Positions 1 through 36,881 of a stretch of DNA of 42,010 nt are shown piece by piece. Positions within the stretch are counted from its first letter, which is position 1; each line of letters begins with the position of its first letter. The notes beneath the pieces were generated by a model, which searched no databases, was not told the origin of the DNA, and saw nothing but the letters and a program-made list of their open reading frames with translations. Made by a program: the position numbers and the translations under genes. This DNA comes from Candidatus Omnitrophota bacterium (lineage in GTDB: Bacteria; Omnitrophota; Gorgyraeia; Duberdicusellales; 4484-171), in contig JAIPHS010000003.1 in the NCBI GenBank assembly GCA_021735105.1, positions 1 through 42,010 on the forward strand. The letters are read 5' to 3'.

Positions 1-1115
1 AAATTATTTGGTGTGGGTTTAGCTGGGCGAATTTAGGATATTCTCAATTTAACCATCCTTATTTAATTCAAATTGCTGATATCGGAGGTACAAAATTAAT
101 CAGTTTTACTATAGTTTTGGTTAATTTTTTAATTTGGGAAATAATAACTCTTCATAAAAGTAAAAATGCTAAACAAAAAAGAGCTTATAAAGAAATTCTA
201 AAAAGGTTATTTTTTCTTTTATTTATATTTGCAGTAATAATAACTTATTCATCTTTTCGGCTTAAAGAAAAAGAATCAAGAAAAAAAATAGGTGTTTCAT
301 TAATCCAGCCAAATATTTTAGATAAGCAGCTTCTTAGGCTAAAGGGTAAGGAAGCAATCTTAAAAAGTTTCTCTATTTTAATAGAAAGGACTCCGGAAGA
401 TAATCTTATTATACTTCCTGAAGCAGCTTGGCCTTATCTTTCAGATAAAGGGGATAGTAAGTTAATTGCTAACTTTGTCAAAGAGAACAAAAGGAATATT
501 CTTATTGGAGCAATTACTAGAGAAGGCGCCGCTTACTATAATTCTGCTTTATTTTTCAATAAAAGCGGCAATTTGGTTGAAACCTATAATAAAATTAAAC
601 TAGTTCCTTTTGGTGAGTACGTTCCTTTACGGAAATACCTAAAGTTTATTGAAGTTTTAAATAGTATCGGTGATATTACCCCCGGGGAAGAAAGAAAAAG
701 CTTCTCTTTTCAAGGTAAAACCTTTGCCGCTCTTATTTGTTTTGAAGATATCTTTCCTTACTATGTAGCTGAGGTAGCAAAGAATAAAGATTTTTTATTA
801 AATATTACCGATGATAGTTGGTTTTATGGGCAGCCGGAAGCAGGGCAGCATTTATCAATTATGGTTTTGCGGGCTATAGAAAATAGAATACCCATAGTAA
901 GAGCTGCAAATAGTGGAATTAGCGGATGGGTTTCCCCAGAAGGTTATGTAACTAAATTGAAAAAAGATAAAGATAATTTGTTTGTTAAGGCTCAAGCAAA
1001 TTTTCAAGTTCCGGTTGATAGAAAAAGAAGTTTTTATAATAAAAGAAAAGGATGGTTTGTGATTTTATCTTTTATCTTTTTAACAGTTATATTTTTTAAG
1101 AAGAAAGTTGATTAA
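1..1115 (+). CDS. lnt: Apolipoprotein N-acyltransferase, 5'-truncated by window
   Basis: Lnt transfers an acyl chain from phospholipid to the N-terminal Cys of lipoproteins at the outer face of the inner membrane. The ORF track starts at an internal TTG, but the frame is open to the first base. The extra residues (LGYSQFNHPYLIQIADIGG) match the periplasmic loop before the last transmembrane helices of Lnt, so the gene is cut by the window edge and does not start at 117. The nitrilase-type catalytic triad is visible: Glu in ILPEAAWP, Lys in KLVPFGEYVP and Cys in ALICFEDIFP. A final hydrophobic helix (WFVILSFIFLTVIFF) ends the protein. Supports a diderm with triacylated lipoproteins, consistent with the lipobox gene at 37309. 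Confidence 0.93.
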   Translation, partial: IIWCGFSWANLGYSQFNHPYLIQIADIGGTKLISFTIVLVNFLIWEIITLHKSKNAKQKRAYKEILKRLFFLLFIFAVIITYSSFRLKEKESRKKIGVSLIQPNILDKQLLRLKGKEAILKSFSILIERTPEDNLIILPEAAWPYLSDKGDSKLIANFVKENKRNILIGAITREGAAYYNSALFFNKSGNLVETYNKIKLVPFGEYVPLRKYLKFIEVLNSIGDITPGEERKSFSFQGKTFAALICFEDIFPYYVAEVAKNKDFLLNITDDSWFYGQPEAGQHLSIMVLRAIENRIPIVRAANSGISGWVSPEGYVTKLKKDKDNLFVKAQANFQVPVDRKRSFYNKRKGWFVILSFIFLTVIFFKKKVD

Positions 1116-1135
1116 ACCAAAAGCTTTGTTATAAT
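1108..1135 (+). promoter_or_regulatory. Promoter of the LpxL-like gene, nearly leaderless
   Basis: A -35 TTGATT (1108-1113) and a perfect -10 TATAAT (1130-1135) are separated by 16 bp. The predicted transcription start near 1142 is about 3 nt before ATG 1145. No Shine-Dalgarno sequence lies before that ATG. The -35 overlaps the lnt stop codon. Confidence 0.55.
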
Positions 1136-1144
1136 TTGTTTCCT

Positions 1145-2086
1145 ATGGATAAAAAAGAAAAAAAGAAATTATTAAGAAGAAAAGTTGGCCTCTGTTTTAT
1201 CAAAAGTTTTACCTTTTTGTCCGGAGTGGTACCTATTGGGGTAAATCTTTTTTTGGGTAAAATTTTAGGATCCTTAGCTTATTTAGTTTTGCCCCGGCAT
1301 CGAAAAATTGCCTTAGACAGCCTTTCGATAGCTTTTCCCAGCTATTCTTTAAGTAAGAGAAAAAAAATTGCTAAGCAATTTTTCGTTTTTATTGCAGAGG
1401 GCGGTTTTGAACTTATCTATTACCTTAATAATATCAAAAAAATACATCAACCGGTTAAGATTGAAGGCAAAGATAATTTAGATCAAGCTTTGGCCAAAGG
1501 CAGGGGTGTAATTTTAGTTACGGCTCACTATGGAAACTTTCCTTTGATGAGCCTGCGTCTTGCAGCAGAAGGATATCCGGTAAACCTGGTGACCAGGCCG
1601 ATGCGGGATAAATACGCAGAGGCCCATTTTCATAAATTAAGAACAGATGCCGGGGTGAAAAATATCTCTGTTTATCCGCGCCGAGCCTGTGTATCGGGAA
1701 TAATTAATGCTTTGGCTAGAAATGAAATAGTGATAATTTTAATGGATCAAAATTTTGGCACCGGTGGAGTTTGGGTAAAGTTTTTTAACAAATTAGCGGC
1801 AACTCCAATTGGGCCGATAATTTTATCTTTACGTACTAAAGCGGCTTTGGTCCCTTCCTATATATATAGGAAGGGAGAAAAAAGACATGGCCTTAAGATA
1901 TTTCCGGAAGAAGATTTAATTTCAGGAAAAGATAAAAATGAAACAATTCTGCTTAATGCAGCTAATTTTACAAAAATTATAGAAAAGTGGATTGAAAAAA
2001 GGCCGGGGCATTGGAGTTGGGTTCACCGGCGCTGGAAATCACGCCCGCCAAAAAATGTAGATGAAAATAAGGTATTTGATAGATAA
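1145..2086 (+). CDS. LpxL/HtrB-family lysophospholipid (lipid A-type) acyltransferase
   Basis: Family PF03279 member, likely adding a secondary acyl chain to lipid A or a related lipid at the inner membrane. About 313 aa, the usual family length. An N-terminal hydrophobic segment (VVPIGVNLFLGKILGSLAYLV) is followed by the acyltransferase core with TAHYGNFPLM near residue 130, NLVTRPM, and IILMDQNFGTGGVWVKFF. The C-terminus RPGHWSWVHRRWKSRP is the family hallmark. The catalytic box is normally H-x4-D/E, but here the position after HYGNF is Pro, so the acid is missing in the usual register. ATG 1145 is preferred to the tracked TTG 1136 because the promoter places +1 just before it. Directly after lnt, so both act in envelope lipid modification. 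The exact acceptor is not determinable. Confidence 0.85.
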   Translation: MDKKEKKKLLRRKVGLCFIKSFTFLSGVVPIGVNLFLGKILGSLAYLVLPRHRKIALDSLSIAFPSYSLSKRKKIAKQFFVFIAEGGFELIYYLNNIKKIHQPVKIEGKDNLDQALAKGRGVILVTAHYGNFPLMSLRLAAEGYPVNLVTRPMRDKYAEAHFHKLRTDAGVKNISVYPRRACVSGIINALARNEIVIILMDQNFGTGGVWVKFFNKLAATPIGPIILSLRTKAALVPSYIYRKGEKRHGLKIFPEEDLISGKDKNETILLNAANFTKIIEKWIEKRPGHWSWVHRRWKSRPPKNVDENKVFDR

Positions 2087-2104
2087 TATTCAGTCAAATA
2101 GCTA

Positions 2105-2132
2105 TTGTAAACGTTATTTTTTTTGATAAAAT
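2105..2132 (+). promoter_or_regulatory. Promoter of the outer-membrane protein gene, leaderless
   Basis: TTGTAA (2105-2110), a 16-bp spacer and extended -10 TGA-TAAAAT (2124-2132). Predicted +1 is near 2139, at the ATG of 2140. This argues against the tracked ATG at 2131, which lies inside the -10. Confidence 0.5.
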
Positions 2133-2139
2133 GATATCA

Positions 2140-4794
2140 ATGAAGAGATTTTTATCTTTTTTAATTATCTTTTTTTGCCTGCCTTCAGTTTTTGCTCTTT
2201 CCGGAGATGCTTATCTGGTTGAAACTGGAGAAAAATGCATTAATCAAGGGTGGTTCCAGCAAGCAAAAGTTGAGTTTGAAAAAGCCCTTCAAATTAATCC
2301 TGACAACAGTAAAGCTAAAGAATATTTAAATCAATTGCGTAAACAAGAAGTTGAAAAAGCTTTGGATAGATATTCAAAAGCAAAACCAGCATCTAAAAGA
2401 AAGACTAGCCAAAAAGTAGTAAAAGGCACAAAGCCGCCCTCTCCTCAAGAACCTATCGTTGAACAACCGGAAGAAAAAGAGTCTAAATTTTCTTTAAAAG
2501 GTGATTATCAATTAAGTTTTGGCGTTGAATCAGGTGAAACTATCTGGAAAAGAGCCAATGCTGATTTAAATGAGGAGAATTGGCGCATTCTTGATAGCAC
2601 TGCTTATAACCGGCGGGAAAACACTTTTGATCCGGCAATTTTTAGTCGTTTGTCATTCCAGCTAGACTATCCCCAAGACCAAGGTTGGGGTTTTCACAGT
2701 AACTTTGATATTAGCCCCTGGAGTTTTATCGGGAAGAGTAATAAAGTTACTATTGATGGTGCAGGAGGGGATAGTGCAGATATCCAATACTTATATTGGT
2801 CCAATAATCGTTATACTGTAAACCAGTCAGTAAATACTAACCTCAATGCAGATTCTTTTAATTTACCGGAGTTAAAAGTAGTTGATGGCAAAACTTCTCA
2901 GGTAAGCATTACAAGTATGAATGGCAATGTTTTTACGATTAAAGAGCAAGAAATTAATCGTGACTTTTGGCCGCTTCGAAAGTTAGAATTTAGCTATAAA
3001 GGCGATCCGCTTAGCTTAAAAATATTTCCGGCTGCCTTAGAAAATGCTGACTATATCTCAGATGACCCGCTTAAAATTACCGGAAACAGAACCTATTGGG
3101 AAGAGTCAGAGTGGATTGTGAATTGGAAACCGGGTAATCTTAATTCCGGGGCAGCTCCGGTAGGGTATTATAAGGGTAAATTTGATGATGCTTTAGCCTA
3201 TTTTACTCGTGATTCTTACGGGACTCGCCTTACTGCTTTGCGCGGTTTTGCATTAAACTACGATTTAGAAGGTATAAATATTGATTTTACCGCAGCTTCT
3301 CCTAAAGAGCTCTGGCAGGATTATGATAGTTTCAACACTTGGTCTTCTGCTTTACGGGCAAAATATTTAAATTTAGACAATATCGTTTTAGGTTTTACCT
3401 ACGGCGGAAAGTTTGGTTACAATAAGAGGTCTTTAGATGTTTTCAATAATGTATTTGGCCTCGATGCAAATATCGGCTTAGGAGATAATACAGAACTTTT
3501 ATTGGAAGGGCTTACCTCTTATACTGAAACTGATAGAACCTCAGACTATGAAACTGAAAAACGGGGCAACGCTTTTCATCTTAGTTTAGTTAACTCTTCC
3601 GGCGGAGTTTTTGGTAAAGATTATTTTGGGGTTAATCCTAAAGGGGATGAATCTTTTTATAAGCTGAGGTTATCTTTAACTCATATGGATCAAGGCTTTG
3701 AAAGCGCTTTAGCCAGTTACCGCCAAACCAGAGATGATGAGTATTGGTCAAGGCATATCACCTTCCGTAAGCCTTTTGAATCTTACCGTATGGGAGGCCT
3801 CTATGGGCCGTCCTTGAGGTGGGATGATATCAAGCCCTTTCGGATTGGAGATGGGATTGATTATGGCAGAGATGTAATTAGTTTAAGAGTTGAGTGGGAA
3901 AATCTTTTTGATAATCGGTTAGATGCTTTATTTGATGTTCGCAATGTCCATGATACCGACGGAAAGTTTCTTGAGAATATTGCCAGGTTAGAAGGTCAAT
4001 TTAGGCTAACCGATAAACTCACTACAAAGTTTTTAGGTATCTATCAAAAGATGCCTAAAACTGTTGCCGGTATTGATCCTTTTATTTTTGACCCTCAAAC
4101 TGATGATTACTATAATAATGATGAGATAGAAGATGGCAAAGACCCCTCTTTAAAGACGGTTGGTTTAGGTGCTAATTATAATTTTTTTAAGTGGCTGAAT
4201 TTAAATTTTAGCTGGGAACATTCTAATGACGTAACTTTAGCTTATGATAATTTTCCCCGTAGTATTTTAAATAGTGTAGATTGGTGGGCTACTACTGCTG
4301 AAGATAATAAAACTTTTTATCAAGAGGTTCATCAAGTTTACAACAACCAATATTTTCCACTACCGCCTTATCCCTATTTTGATATCTTTAAAGTGGGCAT
4401 AGGCTTTAGGCCTACTGACAAGATTAATTTATACCTTGACTATACCCGTAATGAATATTATTGGGCTCAAATTATCGATGAAAATATGAATCATGTTGGG
4501 CTTTCAGCTAGCTATCTTCCTACTGATAAAATTGGTTTTTACCTAAGATATGTATATTCTAAAGTCAATGATTTATCTGAACTAAACGATGATACACGTG
4601 TAGTTAAACGCACACACCATACGGTATTTTCAGAAGTAAGGTTTAGGTTAGAAGAGTCAAGTGAATTGATTGCTCAATACGGTGTTGGCAATACTGGAGG
4701 AATTTTAGAATCAACCTATACTCCTTTTGGAGGAGGAGTACCAACCTTAGACACCCAACATATTTTTAGGGTTTATTACCGGAAAAAGTTTTAA
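2140..4794 (+). CDS. TPR-containing outer-membrane beta-barrel protein, unnamed family
   Basis: About 884 aa. The start at 2140 gives a clean signal peptide (MKRFLSFLIIFFCLPSVFA). Residues about 25-70 form one TPR-like repeat (ECINQ..WFQQAKVEFEKALQINPDNSKAKEYL pattern). A Lys/Pro/Glu-rich linker (residues 80-115) follows. The rest is rich in alternating polar/aromatic strands (for example LSFQLDYPQDQGWGFHSNFD and LNLYLDYTRNEYYW-like stretches) and ends in VYYRKKF. A terminal Phe is the usual BAM recognition signal. I infer an outer-membrane barrel with a periplasmic TPR. I do not recognise a named family; cargo or ligand is unknown. Its neighbours, the lpxL-like gene and an anchored coiled-coil protein, are also envelope components. 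Confidence 0.75.
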   Translation: MKRFLSFLIIFFCLPSVFALSGDAYLVETGEKCINQGWFQQAKVEFEKALQINPDNSKAKEYLNQLRKQEVEKALDRYSKAKPASKRKTSQKVVKGTKPPSPQEPIVEQPEEKESKFSLKGDYQLSFGVESGETIWKRANADLNEENWRILDSTAYNRRENTFDPAIFSRLSFQLDYPQDQGWGFHSNFDISPWSFIGKSNKVTIDGAGGDSADIQYLYWSNNRYTVNQSVNTNLNADSFNLPELKVVDGKTSQVSITSMNGNVFTIKEQEINRDFWPLRKLEFSYKGDPLSLKIFPAALENADYISDDPLKITGNRTYWEESEWIVNWKPGNLNSGAAPVGYYKGKFDDALAYFTRDSYGTRLTALRGFALNYDLEGINIDFTAASPKELWQDYDSFNTWSSALRAKYLNLDNIVLGFTYGGKFGYNKRSLDVFNNVFGLDANIGLGDNTELLLEGLTSYTETDRTSDYETEKRGNAFHLSLVNSSGGVFGKDYFGVNPKGDESFYKLRLSLTHMDQGFESALASYRQTRDDEYWSRHITFRKPFESYRMGGLYGPSLRWDDIKPFRIGDGIDYGRDVISLRVEWENLFDNRLDALFDVRNVHDTDGKFLENIARLEGQFRLTDKLTTKFLGIYQKMPKTVAGIDPFIFDPQTDDYYNNDEIEDGKDPSLKTVGLGANYNFFKWLNLNFSWEHSNDVTLAYDNFPRSILNSVDWWATTAEDNKTFYQEVHQVYNNQYFPLPPYPYFDIFKVGIGFRPTDKINLYLDYTRNEYYWAQIIDENMNHVGLSASYLPTDKIGFYLRYVYSKVNDLSELNDDTRVVKRTHHTVFSEVRFRLEESSELIAQYGVGNTGGILESTYTPFGGGVPTLDTQHIFRVYYRKKF

Positions 4795-20762: not shown

Positions 20763-20791
20763 TTGACTGGATAAGGTTTTTCGTTTATTAT
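20763..20791 (+). promoter_or_regulatory. Promoter of the arg-dap supercluster, nearly leaderless
   Basis: TTGACT (20763-20768), a 17-bp spacer and TATTAT (20786-20791). Predicted +1 is near 20798, essentially at ATG 20799 of argC. No Shine-Dalgarno precedes argC. No ArgR-type palindrome (TGAAT-N4-ATTCA style) is seen. Confidence 0.55.
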
Positions 20792-20798
20792 AACTGGT

Positions 20799-21818
20799 AT
20801 GATTAAAGTAGGAATTTTAGGGGCTACAGGCTTTACCGGGGAAAAATTAGTTGAGATTTTATTATCACATCCAGAAGTCAAAGTTACCTACATTGCTTCT
20901 CGCACTAAAGAACCGGTATTATATTCTGAAATTTTTCCCAAGTTTTATAAAAAAACTTCAATAAAATGCCAGCCGCTTAATATAAAAGAGGCAATAGATT
21001 CTTGTGATCTTTTATTTTTATCATTACCGCATACTGTTTCAATGCAGTTTGTCCCTAAAATTTTAAAAAAAGGTAAAAAAGTAATAGATCTTTCGGCTGA
21101 TTATCGCTTCAAAAAAGCTGCGGCCTATAAAAGCCTTTATGAAAAGGAACATCAGGATAAAAAGAACCTAAAAAAATCAGTTTATGGTTTACCTGAGCTA
21201 TTTAAAGAAGAGATAAAAAAAGCGCAATTAATAGCAAATCCTGGATGTTACCCAACTTCAATAATTCTTGCTCTATATCCCTTATTATCTGAAAAGTTAG
21301 TTAAAGGTAAAATCGTAATTGATTCGAAATCGGCGATTACCGGGGCAGGCCGGAAAGCATCTATTGATTATCACTATTCTGATCTGGCTAATAATTTTTG
21401 GGCTTATAAACCCTTCGTTCATCAGCATCAGCCTGAAGTAGCAGAAATCTTAGGCCAAAATCTAATAAAATCTTTAACTTTTTCTTTTCTTCCTCAAGTA
21501 GCTAGTTTTGAAGCTGGTATTTATTCTACAATTCATCTTTCTTTTAAGAAAAAAATTAATAAAAATATATTGGACAAAATCTATAATAAGTACTACCAAA
21601 GTTATCCTTTTATCCGGCTTGGCACTAAAATTCCTAAATTAAAAGATGTGGTGGGAACAAATTTTTGTGATATAGGATTTGCTGTAGATAAAAAAGGCCA
21701 AAATGCGGTAGTAATTTCCGCTATTGATAATTTAGTTAAAGGAGCGGCTGGCCAAGCAATTCAAAATATGAATTTGATGTTTGGCTTTAAAGAAACAACC
21801 GGGTTTCTTTCTTTATAG
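20799..21818 (+). CDS. argC: N-acetyl-gamma-glutamyl-phosphate reductase
   Basis: 339 aa. NADPH-dependent third step of arginine synthesis, yielding N-acetylglutamate semialdehyde. Rossmann motif at the start (VGILGATGFTGEKLVEIL), active-site Cys in LIANPGCYPTSIILALYPL (about residues 145-163), KSAITGAGRKAS, and the C-terminal NLVKGAAGQAIQNMNLMFG signature. Full length. First gene of argCJBDFGH; its promoter predicts a leaderless mRNA. Confidence 0.97.
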   Translation: MIKVGILGATGFTGEKLVEILLSHPEVKVTYIASRTKEPVLYSEIFPKFYKKTSIKCQPLNIKEAIDSCDLLFLSLPHTVSMQFVPKILKKGKKVIDLSADYRFKKAAAYKSLYEKEHQDKKNLKKSVYGLPELFKEEIKKAQLIANPGCYPTSIILALYPLLSEKLVKGKIVIDSKSAITGAGRKASIDYHYSDLANNFWAYKPFVHQHQPEVAEILGQNLIKSLTFSFLPQVASFEAGIYSTIHLSFKKKINKNILDKIYNKYYQSYPFIRLGTKIPKLKDVVGTNFCDIGFAVDKKGQNAVVISAIDNLVKGAAGQAIQNMNLMFGFKETTGFLSL

Positions 21819-36580: not shown

Positions 36581-36602
36581 ACTAGCAAAAGAGTGATATA
36601 AT
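36575..36602 (+). promoter_or_regulatory. Extended -10 promoter giving a leaderless GTG mRNA
   Basis: TGATATAAT (36594-36602) with a weak TTATAA at 36575-36580. Predicted +1 falls at 36609, the first base of the GTG start. Only T residues separate the -10 from the start codon, so no Shine-Dalgarno is possible. Confidence 0.55.
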
Positions 36603-36608
36603 TTTTTT

Positions 36609-36881
36609 GTGGCTAATAAATTTATTAAAATTATACTGGCTCTTTCAATCTTTATAGCTAGTATTTCTTTATTTTATAAATTTGTCTTAGAACCCTTTCA
36701 GCAAAAAAATAAATTAGATCAATGCATCCAAACGTTAGAAGAGCATCATAGCCAACGATGGAATAATTCTTGTAAAGCGTTGGGGCTTGAAGAAGGGTGT
36801 GGCCTAGATAAAGATGCCGCGACCATTCATCTTAGGGTTTATGAAAATGAAAAAGAAGATTGTTATAGAAAATATGAGTGA
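36609..36881 (+). CDS. Small membrane-anchored protein with four cysteines, unknown
   Basis: 90 aa. An N-terminal helix (FIKIILALSIFIASISLFYKFVL, residues 5-27) is an anchor or uncleaved signal. The remaining 60 residues are polar with Cys39, Cys55, Cys64 and Cys85, spaced in a way that could form two disulphides if the tail is periplasmic. No family recognised. The start is GTG 36609, exactly where the promoter predicts +1, so translation is probably leaderless. The gene stands alone between a membrane protein and the small zinc-type ORF. Confidence 0.65.
   Translation: MANKFIKIILALSIFIASISLFYKFVLEPFQQKNKLDQCIQTLEEHHSQRWNNSCKALGLEEGCGLDKDAATIHLRVYENEKEDCYRKYE

What the first reader, a model, noticed from the sequence alone, without database searches (positions are those of the whole stretch)
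1108..2142. Leaderless or near-leaderless initiation at two consecutive envelope genes
For the LpxL-like gene (TATAAT at 1130-1135, ATG 1145) and the outer-membrane protein (TGATAAAAT at 2124-2132, ATG 2140) the -10 element lies 7-9 bp before the start codon, leaving 0-3 nt of leader and no Shine-Dalgarno site. The same layout recurs at argC (20799) and at GTG 36609. Other genes in the window have strong GGAGG sites, so the organism appears to mix two initiation modes.
Basis: partly seen in the sequence, partly recalled or inferred. Interest (0 to 1): 0.6.

Follow-up and report, generated by a model that had tools for sequence, protein, structure and literature searches.

The report
Leaderless genes in an uncultured bacterium
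In this uncultured Omnitrophota bacterium a minority of genes have their promoter butted against the start codon, so the messenger RNA very probably begins at or within a few bases of the start signal and carries no ribosome-binding site; this start mode is known from other bacteria, but I found no report of it for this phylum.

Summary
At lpxL (ATG 1145), the TPR/signal-peptide gene (ATG 2140), argC (ATG 20799) and GTG 36609, a sigma-70 promoter ends 9, 7, 7 and 6 nt before the start codon, with no Shine-Dalgarno (SD) site and no SD-preceded in-frame start downstream. The host is a Candidatus Omnitrophota MAG. SD genes and operon-internal genes lack the peak. Pooled over seven Omnitrophota samples it is 58/442, against 4/246 SD genes and 6/694 operonic genes; E. 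coli shows 1/54. The lpxL promoter is a phylogenetic footprint (-10 89% and -35 73% identical, spacer and leader 34%) and lysS keeps the layout across the class. argC switches between leaderless and SD-led within the genus. Anti-SD (CCUCC) is intact in relatives, so two initiation modes coexist. This is classic bacterial leaderless initiation (known from Actinobacteria and Deinococcus-Thermus); I found no report for Omnitrophota. Transcript starts remain inferred. The GTG 36609 case is weakest.

The parts
1108..1113 (+). -35 hexamer TTGATT of the lpxL promoter; overlaps the last codons and stop of the upstream lnt-like gene
   Evidence: Read directly; conserved as TTGAnn/TTGnnn in orthologs
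1127..1135 (+). Extended -10 element TGtTATAAT of the lpxL promoter
   Evidence: Read directly; pairwise identity of the -10 among 14 orthologs 89%
1142..1145 (+). Predicted transcript start of lpxL (inferred, 0-3 nt leader)
   Evidence: Inference from -10 position; no transcript data
1145..2086 (+). lpxL-like lipid A acyltransferase, leaderless or near-leaderless
   Evidence: PF03279 E 2.4e-42; N-terminus conserved in relatives from this ATG
2105..2110 (+). -35 hexamer TTGTAA of the TPR gene promoter
2124..2132 (+). Extended -10 element TGaTAAAAT; a spurious in-frame ATG (2131) overlaps it
   Evidence: same layout in G002 and G020
2139..2140 (+). Predicted transcript start of the TPR gene (inferred)
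   Evidence: Inference from -10 position
2140..4794 (+). 884-aa protein with apparent signal peptide and weak N-terminal TPR match, leaderless
   Evidence: PF07719 E 2e-4, below the curated cut-off; orthologs start at this ATG
20763..20768 (+). -35 hexamer TTGACT of the argC promoter
20786..20791 (+). -10 hexamer TATTAT of the argC promoter, 17-nt spacer, 7 nt before ATG
   Evidence: conserved in G002, similar in G010 and G025
20799..21818 (+). argC, leaderless in this species
   Evidence: TIGR01850 E 5e-121
36594..36602 (+). Extended -10 element TGaTATAAT, 6 nt before GTG; no good -35
36609..36881 (+). 90-aa ORF, GTG start, no family match; weakest candidate

Best explanation
These genes are transcribed from ordinary sigma-70 (RpoD) promoters, often with an extended -10 (TGn), placed so that RNA synthesis starts at the A of the start codon or within about 6 nt before it. 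The mRNA therefore has no room for an SD site. As established for leaderless mRNAs in other bacteria, it would be bound by 70S ribosomes or by 30S carrying initiator tRNA and IF2, through the 5'-terminal AUG. The rest of the genome uses SD-led initiation with a normal anti-SD. Shown here: promoter position, genome-wide peak, exclusion with SD, restriction to first genes of units, ATG bias, phylogenetic footprint. Inferred: the exact 5' end and the ribosome pathway.
For: Positional peak in 48% of the MAG: 12/100 first no-SD genes at gap 5-10, against 0-2 per other bin and 0.83 +/- 0.94 in shuffles. Pooled over seven Omnitrophota samples 58/442, against 4/246 SD genes (Fisher 4e-8) and 6/694 operonic genes (8e-19), mode at gap 6; E. 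coli 1/54. lpxL: 14 of 29 orthologs keep the -35 / 16-17 nt / -10 / 7-12 nt / ATG layout, with -10 89% and -35 73% identical but spacer (without TGn) and leader only 34%. lysS keeps the layout across several families of the class. Gene-call-free test in 88 genomes (own, order, class): TTGACA-N16..18-TATAAT-N6..9-ATG 171 hits, the same with GTA 70, ATG at 16-19 nt 79. Start codons 56/58 ATG. RpoD with region 3.0 motif HMTET. Anti-SD CCTCC intact in eight relatives' 16S. No SD-preceded alternative start downstream in the four genes.
Against: No transcript ends were available. Gene starts come from a simple caller, not a curated annotation. The score threshold was set after seeing the profile, although thresholds 6-9 all give the peak. 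A -10 at this position physically occupies the SD site, so part of the SD exclusion is trivial. Read-through from the upstream gene (29 nt from lpxL, 53 nt from the TPR gene and argC) could also give leadered mRNAs. lpxL's family gap of 8-12 nt allows a 2-6 nt leader.
Confidence: 0.9

Rival explanations
1. The -10-like hexamers are chance matches in an AT-rich genome and the genes are expressed from unseen promoters farther upstream with weak or no SD.
For: GC is 34%; a plain promoter scan of the region finds no more sites than shuffles (15 against 16.7).
Against: The excess is position-specific and absent from shuffles, other bins, SD genes and E. coli. The hexamers are conserved in lpxL orthologs while the flanking bases are not.
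Confidence: 0.04
2. The true start codons lie downstream with an SD, and the promoters give normal leadered mRNAs.
For: Start mis-assignment is common in automatic annotation (general knowledge; no tool result supports it here).
Against: No SD-preceded in-frame start in the first 40 codons of the four genes. lpxL orthologs keep a similar lysine/glutamate-rich peptide immediately after this ATG. The TPR protein's apparent signal peptide begins at 2140. ArgC matches TIGR01850 from residue 2.
Confidence: 0.03
3. Very short leader rather than truly leaderless: transcription starts 2-6 nt before AUG and initiation is SD-independent but not 5'-terminal, possibly mixed with read-through or coupled initiation from the upstream gene.
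For: lpxL gap is 8-12 nt in the same family. The upstream gene is on the same strand 28-53 nt away in all four cases.
Against: The pooled mode is gap 6, where the A of ATG is the canonical +1. argC, the TPR gene and GTG 36609 have gaps of 6-7.
Confidence: 0.3

Closest known systems
Bacterial leaderless genes with TA-like (-10) signal about 12 bp upstream of the start (Zheng et al. 2011, PMC3160421)
   Same: TANNNT/TATAAT next to the start codon, no SD, coexistence with SD genes, TGn extension in low-GC genomes, switching of mode between orthologs
   Different: Omnitrophota is not among the groups listed there. The share with a strong promoter here is about 4-5% of genes, lower than the about 20% (Actinobacteria) and about 40% (Deinococcus-Thermus) reported, although the methods differ.
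-10 motif adjacent to ORFs in Deinococcus-Thermus (Zhong et al. 2025, PMC12340547)
   Same: -10 element a few bp from the ORF drives leaderless mRNA; tested there by mutation and reporter
   Different: In Omnitrophota many sites also have a good -35 and the mode is a minority.
Leaderless transcriptome of Mycobacterium tuberculosis (Cortes et al. 2013, PMC3898074)
   Same: Two initiation modes in one genome
   Different: There shown by mapped transcript starts; here inferred from sequence.

Membership tests
Bacterial leaderless mRNA genes | -10 element positioned so that +1 falls at or within a few nt of the start codon | tested here: met
   Gaps 9, 7, 7, 6 nt; genome-wide mode at 6-7
Bacterial leaderless mRNA genes | No SD upstream of the start codon | tested here: met
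   SD match <=3 nt for three genes; the 4-nt hit at 36609 lies in the -10 region
Bacterial leaderless mRNA genes | ATG strongly preferred as start codon | tested here: met
   56/58 ATG in pooled candidates against 325/384 in other SD-less first genes; GTG 36609 is an exception
Bacterial leaderless mRNA genes | First gene of a transcription unit | tested here: met
   58/442 first no-SD genes against 6/694 operonic genes
Bacterial leaderless mRNA genes | mRNA 5' end mapped to 0-5 nt before the start codon | not testable with these tools
   No RNA data available
Bacterial leaderless mRNA genes | Translation without SD by 70S or IF2-tRNA-30S | not testable with these tools
   Biochemistry needed
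Non-SD A/T-rich ribosome-binding-site type (Bacteroidetes-like) | General lack of SD genome-wide | tested here: not met
   49% of genes carry SD >=4 nt; anti-SD CCTCC intact in relatives

The most novel reading that the evidence does not exclude
Leaderless initiation is a regular, anciently retained mode across the Omnitrophota, fixed for core genes such as lysS and lpxL, with a C(-2)T(-1) context next to the start codon that acts as an initiator fixing transcription start on the A of AUG.
Probability: 0.4. Interest if true: 0.5.

Novelty: new member of a known kind. Interest (0 to 1): 0.36.

Why it matters
Omnitrophota are uncultured and known almost only from MAGs. A leaderless gene class means that SD-trained gene callers may misplace starts (for example ATG 2131 inside the -10 of the TPR gene). 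It also gives exact predicted promoter and start positions for core genes, and extends mixed SD/leaderless initiation to a phylum where I found no report of it. The within-genus switch at argC offers a natural case for studying how one mode turns into the other.

Tried and rejected
Raw counts of TATAAT with <=1 mismatch by distance gave no clear peak; the peak appeared once SD status, unit position and the -35 were included. First ortholog alignment was wrong because minus-strand loci are not reoriented; redone. 16S search in the window's own MAG found none, so anti-SD was read in relatives. A plain promoter scan of the first 5 kb was uninformative. Considered and rejected: chance AT-rich hexamers, mis-assigned starts, Bacteroidetes-like loss of SD. 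Literature searches for leaderless genes in Omnitrophota or related phyla gave nothing directly relevant; one GeneMarkS-2 paper was not held.

Full report
WHAT WAS CHECKED. lpxL: TTGATT-16-TGtTATAAT-9-ATG 1145. TPR gene: TTGTAA-16-TGaTAAAAT-7-ATG 2140. argC: TTGACT-17-TATTAT-7-ATG 20799. Fourth: TGaTATAAT-6-GTG 36609, without a good -35. With a -10 hexamer at -12 to -7, a gap of 6 nt puts +1 on the first base of the start codon, so the predicted leaders are 3, 1, 1 and 0 nt, or 0 if the start shifts to the A. No SD of 4 nt or more precedes the first three. The 4-nt hit at 36609 is GTGA inside the -10 region. No in-frame start with SD occurs in the first 40 codons.

HOST AND GENES. The closest relatives of the lpxL gene are in Candidatus Omnitrophota MAGs, and the window is one whole contig of a 905-kb, 77-contig MAG. 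The upstream gene is Lnt-like (TIGR00546), then lpxL (PF03279), then an 884-aa protein with an apparent signal peptide and a weak TPR match; argC is TIGR01850. The name 'outer-membrane protein' for the third is not demonstrated.

GENOME-WIDE TEST. Genes were called in 437,627 bp of the MAG (48%) with a dicodon model and starts chosen without using upstream signals. Promoters were scored with -35, spacer, extended -10 and -10. Among 100 first-in-unit genes without SD, 12 had a score of 8 or more at gap 5-10, against 2, 0, 0, 1, 1, 2 in the following 6-nt bins and 0.83 +/- 0.94 in shuffles (maximum 5 of 200). Thresholds 6, 7 and 9 give the same picture. SD genes (>=5 nt) have promoters instead mostly at gaps of 18-43. 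Counting first genes at contig edges, the number is 17 of 121, and 18 of 397 genes overall qualify.

RELATIVES AND CONTROLS. The same pipeline on about 200 kb each of six more Omnitrophota genomes gives an excess over shuffles in each, and none in 200 kb of E. coli K-12 (1/54). Pooled: 58/442 first no-SD, 4/246 first SD, 6/694 operonic, with a sharp mode at gap 6-8. A test free of gene calling, in 88 genomes (own, order, class), gives 171 hits for TTGACA-N16..18-TATAAT-N6..9-ATG, 70 for the permuted codon GTA and 79 for ATG at 16-19 nt (summed). Several of the 79 re-find the same leaderless promoters through a later ATG. The 57 genomes of other classes give 36 hits; no control sum was made for them, so the signal outside this class is less certain.

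CONSERVATION. For lpxL, 14 of 29 orthologs carry the layout. Mean pairwise identity is 89% in the -10 and 73% in the -35, but 34% in the spacer (without TGn) and 34% in the leader, the mark of a selected promoter next to a short unconstrained leader. In the window the -35 overlaps the end of the upstream gene. The N-terminal peptide directly after the ATG is conserved. The TPR gene keeps the layout in G002 and G020 but not in G003 and G004. argC keeps it in G002 (same genus), and G010 and G025 have it too, while G003 and G004 of the same genus have an SD (AGAGGT): mode switching, as described for other bacteria by Zheng et al. 2011. Reciprocal-best-hit pairs share the leaderless call more often than independence predicts (4 against 0.5), including IHF/HU-like, NAD synthetase, UgpC-like and lysS. 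lysS has the same promoter-ATG layout in several further families of the class.

MACHINERY. The MAG has an RpoD with the region 3.0 motif RIPVHMTETINK, fitting extended -10 recognition. 16S 3' ends of eight relatives end GGATCACCTCCTTTC, so SD initiation is intact. The window's own MAG lacks 16S.

HOW IT WORKS. The DNA-level part is shown: an RpoD-type promoter abutting the start codon, under selection, used instead of an SD. The RNA-level part is inferred: a 0-6 nt leader and initiation by 70S or initiator-tRNA/IF2-loaded 30S on the 5' AUG, as established elsewhere (background).

CAVEATS. No transcript ends; a simple gene caller; the threshold was chosen after viewing the profile; part of the SD exclusion is steric because the -10 occupies the SD site; read-through from upstream genes could add leadered mRNAs. 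GTG 36609 is a 90-aa ORF without family match or ortholog test, and is the least secure.

NOVELTY. The kind is well known. I found no paper in the held library reporting it for Omnitrophota, so this is a new member of a known kind, useful mainly for annotation and for the evolution of initiation modes.

Noticed in passing
window 2131-2140: A longest-ORF caller starts the TPR gene at ATG 2131, which overlaps its own -10 element; the true start is very probably ATG 2140.
   Followed up: yes
window 1108-1115: The -35 of the lpxL promoter overlaps the last codons and stop of the upstream lnt-like gene; the TTGAnn is conserved in relatives.
   Followed up: partly
L023, L024, L025, L026 (argC loci): Within one genus argC is leaderless in two species and SD-led (AGAGGT) in two others.
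   Followed up: partly
L198-L204 and L061:1459-1499: lysS carries a TTGACA-TATAAT promoter 9 nt before its ATG in many families of the class, one of the most widely kept leaderless genes seen.
   Followed up: partly
pooled leaderless candidates: C at -2 (43% against 17%) and T at -1 (59% against 45%) before the start codon, compared with other SD-less first genes; possibly an initiator context for transcription start on the A of ATG.
   Followed up: no
G000 sample: About 89 first-in-unit genes have neither an SD nor a promoter near the start; mis-called starts, weak promoters or a third mode are not separated.
   Followed up: no
window 117-1115: The Lnt-like ORF matches only positions 126-393 of the lnt profile and lies at the contig edge; its N-terminal part is absent or cut off.
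   Followed up: no
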